Source: Oligoflexia bacterium (GTDB lineage: Bacteria; Bdellovibrionota; Bdellovibrionia; JABDDW01). From it: a DNA stretch of 36,920 bases. Below the pieces are notes generated by a model. That model had not been told where the DNA came from and ran no database searches. It saw only the letters and a list, made by a program, of their open reading frames with translations. The stretch covers positions 1 to 36,920 of the forward strand of contig JAWXAT010000055.1 in the NCBI GenBank assembly GCA_034439615.1, written 5' to 3'. How positions within the stretch are numbered: position 1 is the first letter of the stretch; every line of letters starts with the position of its first letter. Shown here piece after piece: positions 31,417 through 36,920 of the stretch. Made by a program: the position numbers and the translations under genes.

Positions 31417-31827
31417 TTACAGCTTCTGTTGTAAAAAGGGGAGTTCAGTCTTGATGCGATCCTGGGGATCGTAATGACTCGCGAGCTTTTTAACTTTGTT
31501 TGAATCATCGACGAAAACCAGATTCGGCTTAAACAAAGAGCATTGCTCATTTTCAAACTCGGCATAGGCCGCAATGATCACTTTATCACCGGGGTGAACT
31601 AGTCGTGCAGCAGCCCCATTCAGGCAAATTTCTTGAGCTTTGCCATAGATCACGTATGTAGAGAATCTTTGGCCATTGTTGCAATTATAGATATCTACTT
31701 TTTCAAATTCAATGAGATCAGCCGCCTTGCAAAGCGCCGGATCAATAGAGATTGAACCCTCATAATTAAGATCTGCCTCAGTAACGGTAGCTCTATGAAT
31801 TTTAGATTTGAGCAGTGTTCGTTTCAT
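31417..31827 (-). CDS. panD: Aspartate 1-decarboxylase
   Basis: Makes beta-alanine from aspartate for pantothenate synthesis. The proenzyme cuts itself between Gly24 and Ser25 (NYEGSISID), creating the pyruvoyl cofactor; these residues are intact. The NGAAARLV block and [11 protein letters not shown] are present. The usual GSG before ICLNGAAA reads KAQE here, a small change. The start at 31827 ([13 protein letters not shown]) has AGAGGAAAA upstream; the frame is open further, to 31866, but that part belongs to coaX. The gene overlaps coaX by 26 bp and is the last of the operon. Confidence 0.95.
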
Positions 31828-32635
31828 ATTTTTTCCTCTTTGTTGTGGGACTGCTTGGTTTATCAACGTTCATTGCAAGGGCTTTATGTAATCCTAAAAG
31901 TACTAGCTCTGGTATGAGAGCATCAAAGACTTTTTCATTTTCAAAAAGTCTAGAAAACCCACCCGTGCCGATGACGACTGTTGGTTTATTTTCAAAATAT
32001 TTCTTTTTAATTTCACGGCTGAGTTCTTTGAGTACAGCGAGATTACCAAAATAAAGACCTGATTGAATACTCTCAACAGTTGATCTCCCCACAAGCTCTT
32101 TCGGAGCTAGAATTTCAACCGAAGGTAAGCGCGCGGTTTTTGTTTCAAGTGCTTCCATGGAAAGTCGAAGTCCGGGGAGAATCATTCCTCCTAAATACTC
32201 TTTCTCAGAAGTAACGACATCAAAAGTTGTAGCTGTGCCAAAATCAACGATAATGAGATTTTTCCCAGGAAATAAATGTGTTCCTGCAATTGAATTTGCA
32301 ATACGATCGGCACCGACTTCTAATGGGTTTCTGTATTTTATTTTTAATCCTGTTTTGGTACCTGCTTGAAGTAAAAAGGGCTGCATTTTAAAGTATTTCT
32401 GACATGCCCCTTTTAATGAATGCACAACGTCTGGCACTACAGAGCATACTGCAATTTGTTGAATGTTTTTTGGATCAATTTTGTTTTCACGTAAAACCTG
32501 AACTAAAAAAAGTCCAAATTCATCAGATGAATTTGAAAGACGTGAGTTTTTTCTAAATTGAAGGATGATTTTTTGATTCTCATCAAAAACACCCCCATAA
32601 ATTTGGCTGTTACCGACGTCGAGACCTAAAATCAT
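31802..32635 (-). CDS. coaX: Type III pantothenate kinase
   Basis: Phosphorylates pantothenate, the first step of CoA synthesis. The 277-residue protein carries the CoaX actin-like ATPase signatures: [14 protein letters not shown] at the N-terminus (phosphate 1), [12 protein letters not shown], and [14 protein letters not shown] (phosphate 2), and [11 protein letters not shown] near the end. The final ~20 residues are basic and overlap panD by 26 bp. Type III kinases need a monovalent cation and are not inhibited by CoA feedback. The start overlaps the coaB stop by 4 bases. Confidence 0.95.
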
Positions 32636-33294
32636 ATATTCTCCTTAAGTACTTCATTAAGTGCTTGGGCAAGTTCAAGTTTTGTTGTTCCTGATTTTAA
32701 AACTGCATCTTGTTTGTAAATCTCAAACCGATGCATTCCATTTTTTTTGATTTCAACAAAATCATTGTGAACAACAAAATCAATTTCCGAATTTCGAGTT
32801 AACTTTTCAATCGCTGTTTTTTGTTCTTGTAAATCTTCCGTTGCAGTTAATTTAAATGCAATCACTGTAAGTGCAGATGCTGAGTAGGACTTTAACTTTT
32901 CAACAATTTTAAAATTAGGCTTTAAAGTCACTTGAAGTTTTTGATCAGAATGGAGCTTACCACCAGCTTTACTGGGGGCTTGATCAACAGATGTCGTAAT
33001 ATTTTCCACTGAGTAGTCACTCACTGCAGCTAAGTGAATAACGACATCATATTTATAAGTGCTTAACTTGGTTTTAATTTTTTCATTGAGATCATCAAAA
33101 CTTTCAAAATAAGTAACATCTCGTACAATGCGGGGGAGTTGAGCGCCGTGACCAGCAAGTTGGGTGACTTCATGTCCACTTTCGGCCATGAAGTCTGCAA
33201 GTAGTGCCCCTGTTACACCAGTGCTGAAGTTTGTTATAAATCTTAAGCTGTCAAGGGGCTCACGTGTGGCGCCTGAAGTGATTAGAATTTTCAT
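32632..33294 (-). CDS. coaB: Phosphopantothenate-cysteine ligase (separate CoaB domain)
   Basis: Joins 4'-phosphopantothenate to cysteine. In most bacteria this is the C-terminal half of the CoaBC fusion; here it is a 220-residue protein alone. It has [20 protein letters not shown], the start of all CoaB domains, then [27 protein letters not shown] (usual AAVADY) and the Lys-rich [14 protein letters not shown]. The dimer region usual GFAAET reads [11 protein letters not shown]. It overlaps coaC by 4 bases and coaX by 4 bases. Confidence 0.9.
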
Positions 33295-33872
33295 GTCGGT
33301 ACCTCAGGCAAGCTTACATTTTGAATGATATGTTTTGACTTAAAAAATTTAAGAATTTCTATAAATATCGCGTCAGGTTCTAAAAGTCGTCCATGGCCAA
33401 TATCTCCACAGGCTTGATGACCTTCGCCAGTAGGTAAGACGTGAATATTCCAGCTTTGAAGTTTTTCTAACGAAGCCTTTGTAGTTGGGTGCTGATACAT
33501 TTCTTTATTCATTGCAGGTGCAATCAGATAAGGTTTTTTAAGGTCATAAGCTAAAAATAAAGTACCAATACAATTATTCGCAATACCAGAGGCTAAACTA
33601 TTAATCGTATTTGCAGTTGCAGGGCAAACAATCGCAAGATCAGCCCATTTGGCAAAATGAATATGATTCATCATCTGCCCTTCTTGAAATGTGTCAGAGA
33701 AAACTGATTTCCCACTGAGACCTTCAAGAGTTGCAGACCCAATAAATTTTAAAGCTTCAGAGGTTGCAACGGTTTGAACTTCAAAGCCCTCTTGCACAAG
33801 CTTTGAAATTAAATAACATGCTTTGTAACAAGCAATGGAGCCAGAAAGTTGAAATAGAATTTTGCCTTTCAT
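33291..33872 (-). CDS. coaC: Phosphopantothenoylcysteine decarboxylase (separate CoaC domain)
   Basis: Decarboxylates phosphopantothenoylcysteine to 4'-phosphopantetheine with FMN. The 193-residue flavoprotein has LFQLSGSIACYKACYL (usual GSIAAYK), MNHIHFAKWAD with the catalytic His, CPATANTINSLASGIANN (the PASANT motif, here PATANT), LIAPAMNKEMYQHP, and HQACGDIGHGRL with the active-site Cys. So both halves of the CoaBC reaction are present but split. The start overlaps the panC stop by 4 bases. Confidence 0.93.
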   Translation of the reverse strand: MKGKILFQLSGSIACYKACYLISKLVQEGFEVQTVATSEALKFIGSATLEGLSGKSVFSDTFQEGQMMNHIHFAKWADLAIVCPATANTINSLASGIANNCIGTLFLAYDLKKPYLIAPAMNKEMYQHPTTKASLEKLQSWNIHVLPTGEGHQACGDIGHGRLLEPDAIFIEILKFFKSKHIIQNVSLPEVPT

Positions 33873-34633
33873 GGTTGTACCTCGACATTATCTATAAGGC
33901 GAACAGATCCTAATCGTACTGCTCCAAAACGCCGGTTTAAACGATCTTCAATATAATCGATTTCAAAACCCTCATTTTGAAGTGCAAGTTGAATTTCTTT
34001 TACCGTTTTTTGTGAAGAGAGTTCTTTGTAAAAGAGAGGAGCTTTTTTTCGATCATCATATGCTAATAATTGATTTCTTGAACTCATGGCGAGTCCATCA
34101 TTTTCTCGCATTGTTGGGCAACCAATAATTTCTGTACTTAGAAAAAACGCCTCAGCCATTTTTTTAATAAGTAGTAATTGTTGATAATCTTTCTCGCCAA
34201 AATAGGCATGCTCTGCTTGTGCCACTTGCAATAGTTTTAATACTACTGTGAGCATTCCCTGAAAGTGCCCAGGTCTGTGTGTTCCACATAGATAGGGGCT
34301 TAGTTCTTTTTCAGTGACGGCATAATTATAGCCGTCTGGGTAAAGTTCTTCAAATGACGGCAATAAAAGATAATCAGCTCCTGCTGATTTTAATTTTTCT
34401 ATATCTTCAGACATCGGGCGTGGGTAATTTTTTAAATCTTTAGGATCATTAAATTGAGTGGGGTTTACAAAAATACTGACTAAAGTGAGATTATTTTCAC
34501 CTCTGGATTTTTCTACTAAAGATAAGTGTCCCCCATGAAGTGCTCCCATAGTTGGAACAAATCCTAAAGATTTATTTTTTAAATCTAATTTGCGAAGATT
34601 TTGCCACGCTTTAATGTGTTCAATGATTTCCAT
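33869..34633 (-). CDS. panC: Pantoate-beta-alanine ligase (pantothenate synthetase)
   Basis: Condenses pantoate with beta-alanine using ATP. The 254-residue protein has the HIGH-like motif in GFVPTMGALHGGHLSLV, VSIFVNPTQFNDPKDL, PRPMSEDIEKL, CGTHRPGHFQGMLTVVLKL, AYFGEKDYQQLLLIKKM and the KMSKS-like region RENDGLAMSSRNQLL. It is slightly shorter than usual at the C-terminus (family ~280). It starts 1 base inside the panB stop (TAATG), indicating coupling. Confidence 0.95.
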   Translation of the reverse strand: MEIIEHIKAWQNLRKLDLKNKSLGFVPTMGALHGGHLSLVEKSRGENNLTLVSIFVNPTQFNDPKDLKNYPRPMSEDIEKLKSAGADYLLLPSFEELYPDGYNYAVTEKELSPYLCGTHRPGHFQGMLTVVLKLLQVAQAEHAYFGEKDYQQLLLIKKMAEAFFLSTEIIGCPTMRENDGLAMSSRNQLLAYDDRKKAPLFYKELSSQKTVKEIQLALQNEGFEIDYIEDRLNRRFGAVRLGSVRLIDNVEVQP

Positions 34634-35421
34634 TACGCATAACTCTCAAGTTCAGTAGGAAATTTTAAATTCTTCACTTCAGTATCGAAGTTATTTAAAG
34701 CGTTAGATAAAAGTTCATTTCCTTTGAGGTACTGTTTTAAAAATTTTGGTTTAAATGTATTATTCATGCCCAAAAGATCTTGCAAAACTAAAACTTGCCC
34801 ATCGACGTTAATTCCAGCGCCAATACCAATGGTGGGTATTGAAAGTGTTTTTGTAATGTGAGTTGCAACTTGAGTAGGGATACATTCCAAAACCACAGAA
34901 AAACAACCAAGTTCTTCTAATTTAGAGGCCTGCCGAATAATATCTTGAGCCGCACTGTCATCTTTACCTTGAACTTTGAATCCACCAAATTTGTGAATTG
35001 ATTGTGGCGTAAGACCTAGATGCCCCATCACAGGTACTCCTGAATCTACTATTTGACGTACGACGTCTTCATGGCCATCAACACCTTCAAGTTTTACAGC
35101 ATGTGCTCCAGCTTGCATGAGCTTTTCAACACACTCCATTGCAGCGCCCACACCTTTTCGAAATGTCAAAAAGGGCATATCAGCAACGATAAATTTTTTC
35201 ACAGCCCCTCGGCTCACTGCCGCTGTGTGAAGTGTCATCATTTCGGTGGTTGCTTGAAGCGTTGAGGGGTGGCCATGTACCACCATGGCAAGACTATCGC
35301 CCACTAAGATACAATCTATATTTGTTTGAGCAATAATTTGTGCAGACCAATGATCGTAGCATGTGACCATTGATATTTTTTTATTCTCAGTCTTCATTTT
35401 TTTAAAATCAAGAATCGTCAT
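34633..35421 (-). CDS. panB: 3-methyl-2-oxobutanoate hydroxymethyltransferase
   Basis: Transfers a hydroxymethyl group from 5,10-methylenetetrahydrofolate to ketoisovalerate, giving ketopantoate. The 262-residue TIM barrel has ILVGDSLAMVVHGHPSTL (Mg ligand Asp), FIVADMPFLTF (second Mg ligand), AHAVKLEGVD, VPVMGHLGLTPQS, and IPTIGIGAGINVDGQVLVLQDLLGM. The start overlaps the stop of the DUF2520 gene by 4 bases. Confidence 0.96.
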   Translation of the reverse strand: MTILDFKKMKTENKKISMVTCYDHWSAQIIAQTNIDCILVGDSLAMVVHGHPSTLQATTEMMTLHTAAVSRGAVKKFIVADMPFLTFRKGVGAAMECVEKLMQAGAHAVKLEGVDGHEDVVRQIVDSGVPVMGHLGLTPQSIHKFGGFKVQGKDDSAAQDIIRQASKLEELGCFSVVLECIPTQVATHITKTLSIPTIGIGAGINVDGQVLVLQDLLGMNNTFKPKFLKQYLKGNELLSNALNNFDTEVKNLKFPTELESYA

Positions 35422-36155
35422 ATTTTTACCTCATCAGGTCTGTGCGCAAGATCTGGTAAATAAACTTTTACAAATGATAAGTAAATTTCTTGCAAAGGAT
35501 TGTCATCAAGGGCTGCGATATTTTTTAAAATGGTGGAATAATCTTTTCGACTTATTGGCCCGGTGAGAGCTTTTTGGCTTTGTGTTACGAGATTTTTTGC
35601 AGTCTGTTGTAAATAGGGTAGAGCAGCACTTCGTGGGATCATCATCTTTTTTTCCAAAGTTTCAAAAAGCGATTGCCAAAGTAGAACGGTGAAATTTCCG
35701 CTCATCACACAAAGGGCATGATAAAGGGGTTTAAGCTGCACATCGATGGCGTAAAATGGATTTTTTAATTGCGGAAAAATTTTCTTAAATGAGTGACCTT
35801 CTTTTTCACTGATAAAAGGAATCTGCTCATATGTAGTGAGATCATAAAGCTCTGATCCAAAGGTCATTAACGGGTGAAGCCCCTGGGCAGATTTTGTAAC
35901 AAGGGCTCCAGAAAAATGAATGAGAGTTTTATTTTTAAATTCTGGCCAAGATTGAATAAAGCTATCGATAGCAGAGTCTTTGATGAGTACTAAAATAATG
36001 GAGCAAGTACTTAAGGTTTCAAGGGGGCTAAGTTTTGATGTTTTTCTCGACCATTGTTTGTAGGGTATTGCACGTAATGTGAGGTAGTGAATCATATGAC
36101 GAGCCATGCGGCCGTCACCTATAATACCGTAAGTAATTTCTGGTACTTGTCCCAT
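35418..36155 (-). CDS. panG: Rossmann/DUF2520 reductase, probable ketopantoate reductase (PanG-like)
   Basis: A 245-residue protein with an N-terminal Rossmann fold (YGIIGDGRMARHMIHYL, near residue 10) and a C-terminal DUF2520 helical domain (LKPLYHALCVMSGNFTVLL, then LTGPISRKDY). In Francisella a protein of this type, PanG, was shown to be an alternative ketopantoate reductase. The gene leads the panB-panC-coaC-coaB-coaX-panD operon and overlaps panB by 4 bases, and no PanE gene is in the window. So NADPH-dependent reduction of ketopantoate to pantoate is the best guess. GAAAGGA is just upstream of the ATG. The symbol is by inference. Confidence 0.75.
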   Translation of the reverse strand: MGQVPEITYGIIGDGRMARHMIHYLTLRAIPYKQWSRKTSKLSPLETLSTCSIILVLIKDSAIDSFIQSWPEFKNKTLIHFSGALVTKSAQGLHPLMTFGSELYDLTTYEQIPFISEKEGHSFKKIFPQLKNPFYAIDVQLKPLYHALCVMSGNFTVLLWQSLFETLEKKMMIPRSAALPYLQQTAKNLVTQSQKALTGPISRKDYSTILKNIAALDDNPLQEIYLSFVKVYLPDLAHRPDEVKI

Positions 36156-36319: not shown

Positions 36320-36351
36320 AGGTCTTTTAGGGAATGCTTGGAGGTTGTATA

Positions 36352-36360
36352 ATGGTGTAA
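36352..36360 (+). other. Two-codon mini-ORF (ATG GTG TAA) before the BFD-domain gene
   Basis: GGAGG at 36340-36344 is 7 bases before ATG GTG TAA. The TAA shares its last A with the ATG of the downstream gene (TAATG). The main gene's own spacing from GGAGG is 15 bases, so translation may run through the mini-ORF first. Confidence 0.4.
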
Positions 36361-36803
36361 TGGGCGCTCAAAAACTCAAAGCTAGAGCTGAAATTTCACA
36401 GCGTGAATGGGTTGAAATGGAAGTCACACTTTCGAGTGATCAAAAAATCGAAACACTCATTTGGCATGCATGGGGTTGTAATCAACTTCTTAAAGCGACT
36501 CAAATTGCGGCTGAAGAAATGAAATCAAAAAAACTTTCTGACATTAAGTGGCTCGGCGTTCAGCATTGGGATCTCCTAATTTCAGAAGTCATGATGCGTT
36601 TACAGGGAAATTTTGAAGTTCCAATGAAAGACGAAGAACTTTGTCATTGCCGAAAAATTCAAGCGTGTAAAATTGATGAAGCCATCGTAATGGGTGCACA
36701 CACACCTGAAAAAGTGAAGGCCTGGACTACAGCAAGTTCGGGATGTGGAACTTGTCGACCAGATGTTGAAAAGCTCATTTCATTTCGACTTACTAAGAAA
36801 TAA
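36360..36803 (+). CDS. NifU-like N-domain plus BFD-type [2Fe-2S]-binding protein
   Basis: A 147-residue protein. The C-terminal part carries the Fer2_BFD cysteine set C95-x-C97-x31-C129-x2-C132 (CHCRKI..., GAHTPEKVKAWTTASSGCGTC), which binds a [2Fe-2S] cluster in bacterioferritin-associated ferredoxin and in the middle of NifU. The N-terminal ~90 residues resemble the NifU/IscU scaffold (IWHAWGCNQLLKATQIAAEE, compare FKTFGCGSAIA), but only the central Cys (Cys40) is kept, so it is probably not a working scaffold. There is no C-terminal Nfu domain. The ATG at 36360 is taken rather than TTG at 36345. It is divergent from the pan operon. Confidence 0.75.
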   Translation: MGAQKLKARAEISQREWVEMEVTLSSDQKIETLIWHAWGCNQLLKATQIAAEEMKSKKLSDIKWLGVQHWDLLISEVMMRLQGNFEVPMKDEELCHCRKIQACKIDEAIVMGAHTPEKVKAWTTASSGCGTCRPDVEKLISFRLTKK

Positions 36804-36812
36804 AATTAACCA

Positions 36813-36920
36813 CGGAAACTATCCGCGGAAACTAACCGCGAAAACTAACCGCAACAACTCAACACAACAACTCAACACAACAACTCAACACAACAACTCA
36901 ACACAACAACTCAACACAAC
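36813..36920. repeat. 13-bp tandem repeat array running off the window
   Basis: Eight complete 13-bp units and a partial one. The first three are diverged (CGGAAACTATCCG, CGGAAACTAACCG, CGAAAACTAACCG); the next five are identical CAACAACTCAACA (36852-36916). The array starts 9 bp after the BFD-domain gene stop and reaches the last base. No terminator hairpin is seen. Confidence 0.95.

What the first reader, a model, noticed from the sequence alone, without database searches (positions are those of the whole stretch)
36360..36803. Degenerate NifU-like domain fused to a BFD [2Fe-2S] domain
Seen: full BFD cysteine set, but only one of the three scaffold cysteines in the NifU-like part, and no Nfu domain. 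Such a protein could sense or hold a cluster rather than build one.
Basis: partly seen in the sequence, partly recalled or inferred. Interest (0 to 1): 0.5.

Follow-up and report, generated by a model that had tools for sequence, protein, structure and literature searches.

The report
Ferredoxin with a broken scaffold domain
A small protein shared by many bacteria related to the predator Bdellovibrio joins an iron-sulfur ferredoxin to what looks like a disarmed copy of the cell's iron-sulfur building platform, which suggests it carries electrons or a cluster rather than building clusters.

Summary
The ORF (36360-36803, +, 147 aa) carries a full BFD [2Fe-2S] domain (Cys95, 97, 129, 132; Pfam 45 bits). 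Its first ~85 residues are predicted to fold like IscU (pLDDT 89; Z 10.4, 84 residues), although Pfam's NifU_N profile does not recognise them in the window protein and a second model, of a relative, matched IscU only weakly (Z 5.2). Of IscU's three ligand cysteines only the second is kept (Cys40).

It is not a decayed one-off. 91 of 143 genomes of the class have it; outside the class only 1 of 225, probably mis-binned. In 92 aligned sequences the four BFD cysteines are invariant, the Cys37 position is never Cys, the Cys106 position is Cys once, and Cys40 is kept in 68. Conservation peaks in BFD and the junction to it. Most carriers lack a canonical NifU_N protein.

'No Nfu domain' is true of the polypeptide, but in both sister genomes an Nfu gene follows immediately. 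In this genome that Nfu gene lies on another contig, behind an HNH gene.

Best reading: a BFD ferredoxin with an IscU-fold docking domain that has lost the scaffold role, passing electrons or a cluster within iron-sulfur maturation. The function is inferred. I found no description in the papers searched.

The parts
36360..36803 (+). CDS, 147 aa: IscU-fold N-terminal domain + BFD ferredoxin domain
   Evidence: 91 relatives aligned
36360..36635 (+). N-terminal domain, residues 1-92 (strands 4-12, 16-24, 29-38; helices 41-54, 69-81), predicted IscU fold with degraded ligand site
   Evidence: fold; ligand positions; no Pfam hit
36477..36479 (+). Cys40 codon, the one kept scaffold cysteine (IscU Cys63 position); Cys in 68 of 92
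36399..36401 (+). Gln14 codon at the IscU Cys37 position; Cys in 0 of 92
36567..36569 (+). Trp70 codon at the IscU Cys106 position; Cys in 1 of 92. His69 before it stands at IscU His105 (His in 68 of 92)
36642..36779 (+). Fer2_BFD domain
   Evidence: Bfd chain 6e6r matches residues 92-147 at Z 7.9
36642..36650 (+). Cys95-His96-Cys97: first pair of BFD cluster ligands
   Evidence: Cys invariant in 92 of 92
36744..36755 (+). Cys129-Gly-Thr-Cys132: second pair of BFD cluster ligands
   Evidence: Cys invariant in 92 of 92
36340..36344 (+). GGAGG, ribosome-binding-site-like, 15 bases before the ATG
   Evidence: read from the sequence; not tested
36803..36920 (.). two 13-base tandem repeat arrays between the stop codon and the contig end

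Best explanation
It is a [2Fe-2S] ferredoxin of the BFD type joined to an IscU-fold domain that has given up cluster building and most likely serves as a rigid docking module. Proposed mechanism: the N-terminal domain recognises a member of the iron-sulfur maturation machinery (the cysteine desulfurase, SufBCD, or, in the window's family, the Nfu encoded next door) much as IscU or SufU would, and places the permanently bound BFD cluster where it can pass electrons or, less likely, the cluster itself. Shown: domain order, invariant BFD ligands, loss of two scaffold ligand positions across the family, conservation across the class. Predicted: the IscU fold. Inferred: docking, the partner, and electron transfer. 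The nearest precedent is NfuA, whose degenerate A-type domain lacks a ligand cysteine and targets NfuA to apo-proteins (PMC8593673, passages).
For: BFD cysteines 92 of 92; Cys37 position 0 of 92 and Cys106 position 1 of 92 Cys; predicted IscU fold of the window protein; conservation highest in BFD (2.57 bits), the junction 82-94 (2.37) and helix 2 (2.24), lowest in the strands (1.26); present in 91 of 143 class genomes, at most 1 of 225 outside; canonical NifU_N in only 8 of 143 and SufE in 127 of 143, so the main system of the class looks like SUF; translation-coupled Nfu gene in both sister genomes; NifU's stable [2Fe-2S] cluster may provide electrons, and the donors to NifU and SufBC2D are unknown (PMC8593673, passages).
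Against: No partner or biochemical evidence; outside the window's family no Fe-S assembly gene is a common neighbour in the gene clusters I identified. The IscU fold is weaker in the second model (Z 5.2) and sequence similarity to IscU is marginal (hhalign E 0.002-0.004, 0-3 of 100 shuffles as good). 52 of 143 class genomes are without an N-domain match, so the protein is dispensable for the lineage.
Confidence: 0.5

Rival explanations
1. The N-terminal domain only shares a common three-strand, two-helix arrangement with IscU and has another origin (C-terminal domains of lipoate ligases and lipoamide dehydrogenases have a similar arrangement). The protein is then a BFD ferredoxin with an unrelated partner domain.
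For: Non-IscU chains score close to IscU: 4tvw Z 9.2, 3ii4 Z 8.5 against IscU 10.4. The second model reaches IscU only at Z 5.2. The N-domain profile rings no canonical NifU_N protein at E<=1e-3 in 368 genomes and no PDB sequence at E<=10.
Against: Foldseek ranks 1-20 are all IscU/ISCU; NifU_N is the only Pfam family met by more than one of 51 members (3 members, best E 0.028); the Asp39, Cys63, Pro100 and His105 positions are kept in order; the same order, IscU-like then BFD, as in NifU.
Confidence: 0.17
2. An iron-sulfur or redox sensor: the BFD cluster state changes the N-terminal domain and so the activity of a bound partner.
For: A stable cluster without a scaffold site would suit a sensor; the conserved junction would couple the two domains.
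Against: No regulatory or DNA-binding domain found and no regulator gene among the recurrent neighbours identified.
Confidence: 0.1
3. A partner of bacterioferritin: like Bfd, it reduces stored iron so that it can leave the ferritin.
For: BFD domain nearest to the small Bfd next door (hhalign E 6.6e-20); small Bfd ORF convergent in 54 of 92 loci.
Against: Bacterioferritin over the cut-off in only 13 of 143 class genomes, of which 5 carry this protein by comparison; none in the window's genome. Other ferritin types were not tested.
Confidence: 0.08
4. Still a scaffold or sulfur carrier that uses Cys40 (with His69) alone or in a dimer, like SufE or SufU.
For: Cys40 is the best-kept N-terminal cysteine (68 of 92) and His69 is His in 68 of 92.
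Against: 24 of 92 lack Cys40 and 7 of 92 have no cysteine in the domain. SufE or SufU is present elsewhere. No more similar to SufE than shuffled columns are (37 of 100 as good).
Confidence: 0.08

Closest known systems
NifU (NifU_N - BFD - Nfu), such as the full-length proteins L206-L213 of the same phylum
   Same: Order IscU-fold domain then BFD domain; in the window's family an Nfu gene follows in the two sister genomes.
   Different: Two of three scaffold ligands lost, the part before the first IscU strand missing, no Nfu domain in the chain, BFD nearer to small Bfd than to NifU's BFD, and the separate Nfu does not group with NifU C-termini.
IscU / SufU (NifU_N family)
   Same: Predicted fold of residues 1-84 and the order of the Asp39, Cys63 and His105 positions.
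   Different: No NifU_N match over the cut-off; ligands incomplete; fused to BFD.
Bfd (bacterioferritin-associated ferredoxin) and the BFD domains of NirB and proline dehydrogenase
   Same: The [2Fe-2S] domain with C-x-C ... C-x2-C.
   Different: Carries an extra N-terminal domain; bacterioferritin is absent from most carriers.
NfuA (degenerate A-type domain + Nfu)
   Same: A parallel in how it may work: a carrier-type domain that lost a ligand and became a targeting module on a working cluster domain (PMC8593673, passages).
   Different: Different domains on both sides; no homology is claimed.

Membership tests
BFD-type [2Fe-2S] domain (PF04324) | Profile match over the curated cut-off and four ligand cysteines | tested here: met
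   45 bits against 26; four Cys in 92 of 92
BFD-type [2Fe-2S] domain (PF04324) | A bound, redox-active [2Fe-2S] cluster | not testable with these tools
   Needs spectroscopy
NifU/IscU scaffold (NifU_N, PF01592) | Profile match over the curated cut-off | tested here: not met
   No match at E<=10 for the window protein; of 51 N-domains 3 match, best E 0.028
NifU/IscU scaffold (NifU_N, PF01592) | Three ligand cysteines | tested here: not met
   One of three in the window; Cys37 position 0 of 92, Cys106 position 1 of 92
NifU/IscU scaffold (NifU_N, PF01592) | IscU fold | tested here: inconclusive
   Window protein Z 10.4 with Foldseek ranks 1-20 IscU; relative L007 Z 5.2; predicted models only
NifU (three-domain) | C-terminal Nfu domain in the same chain | tested here: not met
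   a separate Nfu gene is adjacent in two sister genomes
Bfd partner of bacterioferritin | Bacterioferritin in the same genome | tested here: not met
   TIGR00754: no match at E<=1e-3 in G000; over the cut-off in 13 of 143
SufE-type sulfur carrier | SufE profile match and an invariant acceptor cysteine | tested here: not met
   Pfam scan of the window protein lists Fer2_BFD only; Cys40 absent in 24 of 92; hhalign to class SufE no better than shuffles

The most novel reading that the evidence does not exclude
This is a dedicated electron donor of the SUF system: a ferredoxin that docks on the cysteine desulfurase or SufBCD by imitating IscU/SufU and supplies the electrons for persulfide reduction. 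In the window's family its gene is coupled to Nfu, so that NifU's domain set has been put together again from separate genes.
Probability: 0.13. Interest if true: 0.7.

Novelty: new variant of a known kind. Interest (0 to 1): 0.4.

Why it matters
Which protein gives electrons to SufBC2D and to NifU is called unknown in a 2021 review (PMC8593673, passages). A class-wide ferredoxin carrying a disarmed IscU-fold domain is a concrete candidate that is cheap to test, in a class whose best-known member, Bdellovibrio, can be manipulated genetically (recalled). It would also be a second case, after NfuA, of a scaffold or carrier domain that lost ligands and became a docking module.

Tried and rejected
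Bacterioferritin partner: few class genomes have bacterioferritin over the cut-off. SufE-like carrier: Cys40 is not invariant and there is no profile similarity. A plain 'NifU cut in two': BFD is nearer to the small Bfd, and the separate Nfu of the window's family groups with the class's own ~200 aa Nfu proteins, not with NifU C-termini (long branch of 1.45, so unsure). In that tree 3 of 8 NifU proteins are missing because their C-terminal part did not pass 15 bits. Searches of PDB sequences with the single protein and with profile A1 gave nothing. PHROGs gave one weak hit (E 0.054). NCBIfam's hits run through the BFD part only. The second AlphaFold model (relative L007) had Bfd as Foldseek's first hit and mostly HIV integrase chains, at probability 0.07 or less, in the rest of the top 50; this counts against the fold claim. 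Literature: the listings showed no description of this family; two papers were read as passages only, the rest as listings. The library holds open-licence papers only.

Rows dropped before counts: of 57 selected N-terminal sequences 51 went into A1 (L108, L120, L124, L125, L128, L130 were left out as odd in length or start). L093, L117, L123 and L125 were left out of the hhalign set. Of 98 loci, 6 (L132-L137) held no full-length relative and were not counted. Seven loci could not be placed in the gene-order clustering.

Full report
What is there. The gene at 36360-36803 (+) encodes 147 residues. It stands back to back with a DUF2520 gene (35418-36155, -) and is the last gene before the contig ends in 13-base tandem repeats. 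Pfam recognises only Fer2_BFD at residues 95-140, 45 bits. NCBIfam's hits are to the same part: NirB 8.7e-9, NifU 0.0017.

Fold of the N-terminal part. AlphaFold on the window protein with seven relatives gave pLDDT 89.2 and pTM 0.83, with strands 4-12, 16-24, 29-38 and helices 41-54 and 69-81 before the BFD helices. Foldseek ranks 1-20 are IscU/ISCU, best E 1.1e-3, none under 1e-3. The second aligner gives IscU Z 10.4, rmsd 2.6, 84 residues; E. coli IscU 9.6; NifU N-terminal domain 5uft 8.1. The best non-IscU chains are 4tvw (resorufin ligase) at 9.2 and lipoamide dehydrogenase at 8.5; Bfd matches residues 92-147 at 7.9. Against this, the model of a relative (L007, pLDDT 88.2) reached IscU only at Z 5.2, still the best match of that domain in the list, and Foldseek showed no IscU in its top 50. 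By sequence, comparison with sets holding IscU or SufU gave E 0.002-0.004 and probability 9-13%; the eight NifU N-domains alone gave 0.12, SufE 0.045, and 12 unrelated neighbour families 0.083 or more. Of 100 column-shuffled controls, 0 to 3 scored as high for the IscU and SufU sets. Among 51 members, NifU_N was the only Pfam family met by more than one: 3 members, best E 0.028. The IscU relationship is therefore likely, but it rests mainly on one predicted structure and on colinear positions.

Cysteines. In 92 aligned sequences (the window and 91 relatives, from 98 loci) the four BFD cysteines are present in all. At the IscU Cys37, Cys63 and Cys106 positions Cys occurs in 0, 68 and 1 of 92. 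The Asp39 position is Asp in 64 and Glu in 13, the Pro100 position Pro in 73, the His105 position His in 68; 7 have no cysteine in the N-terminal domain (E. coli IscU numbering recalled). After reduction to 64 sequences under 70% identity, mean conservation is 1.26 bits in the strands, 1.49 in helix 1, 1.50 in the loop, 2.24 in helix 2, 2.37 in the junction and 2.57 in BFD. Selection seems to act on the cluster-holding part and its attachment more than on the former scaffold site (inference).

Distribution. Searching with the protein finds 98 of 143 class genomes, including matches to a small Bfd only. The N-terminal profile finds 92 of 368 phylum genomes: 91 of 143 in the class and 1 of 225 outside. 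That one, G154, has the same protein letters as G063 over the 139 residues compared, so a mis-binned contig is likely. A scan of 84,980 species genomes with the window protein found 7 relatives; five titles say Bdellovibrio-related, one 'Oligoflexia', one 'Proteobacteria' (the scan needs short exact patterns, so it is not exhaustive).

Other iron-sulfur genes. Canonical NifU_N: 8 of 143 class genomes and 110 of 368 in the phylum; comparing lists, 6 of the 92 carriers have it. SufE: 127 of 143; all three genomes of the window's family lack it. Nfu: 141 of 143, mostly two each. This genome has sufS and a canonical SufU gene in one run with an FeS_assembly_P (PF01883) gene on contig C57. Full-length NifU proteins of 300-344 residues occur elsewhere in the phylum.

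The Nfu next door. In the two sister genomes the order is this gene, then a 78-80 aa Nfu gene overlapping by one base (G142) or starting 4 bases later (G141), then a convergent small Bfd and a DHH phosphoesterase gene. In the window's genome contig C55 ends in repeats after this gene, while contig C15 starts with other repeats, an HNH gene, more repeats, and then Nfu, Bfd and DHH in the same order. The simplest reading is that an HNH-and-repeat insertion split the pair; the contigs are not joined, so this is inference. The BFD part is nearer to the small Bfd (E 6.6e-20) than to NifU's BFD (7e-9), and the Nfu does not group with NifU C-termini. So the NifU-like set may have come together anew rather than be a NifU cut in two.

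Neighbourhood elsewhere. A small Bfd ORF is convergent in 54 of 92 loci (gap of 50 bases or less in 41), on the same strand in 3, and not found as a separate ORF in 35, 5 of them near a contig end. In G028 the small Bfd and this protein form one reading frame. In 35 of 35 loci with both a small Bfd and a DHH match, the DHH lies on the same strand within 400 bases; 5 of the 6 loci without this protein have that pair too. The protein looks like an addition to an older Bfd-DHH pair (inference).

What it most likely does. A scaffold needs its ligands, and this family has dropped them while keeping a ferredoxin cluster site intact, so building is unlikely. A 2021 review says that NifU's stable [2Fe-2S] cluster may provide electrons, that the electron donors to NifU and SufBC2D are unknown, and that the degenerate domain of NfuA targets it to apo-proteins (PMC8593673, passages). 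By analogy I propose a docking module plus ferredoxin acting in iron-sulfur maturation (confidence 0.5 for the whole; the partner is not known). Bacterioferritin is an unlikely partner: only 13 of 143 class genomes have it over the cut-off.

Novelty. The parts are known. The class-wide combination of a disarmed IscU-fold domain with BFD was not found described in the searches and 86 of an open-licence library. I rate it a new variant of a known kind.

Noticed in passing
L138:404-1441 (G000:C15) and other contigs of G000: An HNH endonuclease gene family with 24 matches in this genome, several of them within a few hundred bases of contig ends (C15, C57, C34, C42, C44, C53) and, on C15, flanked by tandem repeats of 15 and 31 bases. 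It may be a mobile, repeat-linked element that breaks the assembly.
   Followed up: partly
window 36803-36920: Two 13-base tandem arrays with different units start at the stop codon of the gene and run to the contig end.
   Followed up: partly
L138:1826-2077 and small Bfd ORFs in 63 loci: The small Bfd proteins end their ligand motif with C-x3-C (GPCGGSC) in 61 of 63, not the C-x2-C of this protein and of E. coli Bfd (E. coli motif recalled).
   Followed up: no
L052:4694-5371 (G028): Small Bfd and the IscU-fold/BFD protein lie in one open reading frame, a possible three-part fusion; it is seen in this one genome, of 54% completeness.
   Followed up: no
L207, L208, L211: Three of eight full-length NifU proteins of the phylum have a C-terminal Nfu-like part without a CxxC motif (read by eye; under 15 bits to the Nfu profile used).
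   Followed up: no
G000, G141, G142: All three genomes of the window's family lack SufE and have a NifU_N protein instead: SufU type in G000 and G141, IscU type in G142. Most of the class is the other way round.
   Followed up: partly
window 31417-36155 (-): By eye a pantothenate/coenzyme A gene run: DUF2520 protein, panB, panC, two ORFs like the halves of CoaBC, coaX, panD. Only DUF2520 was tested.
   Followed up: no
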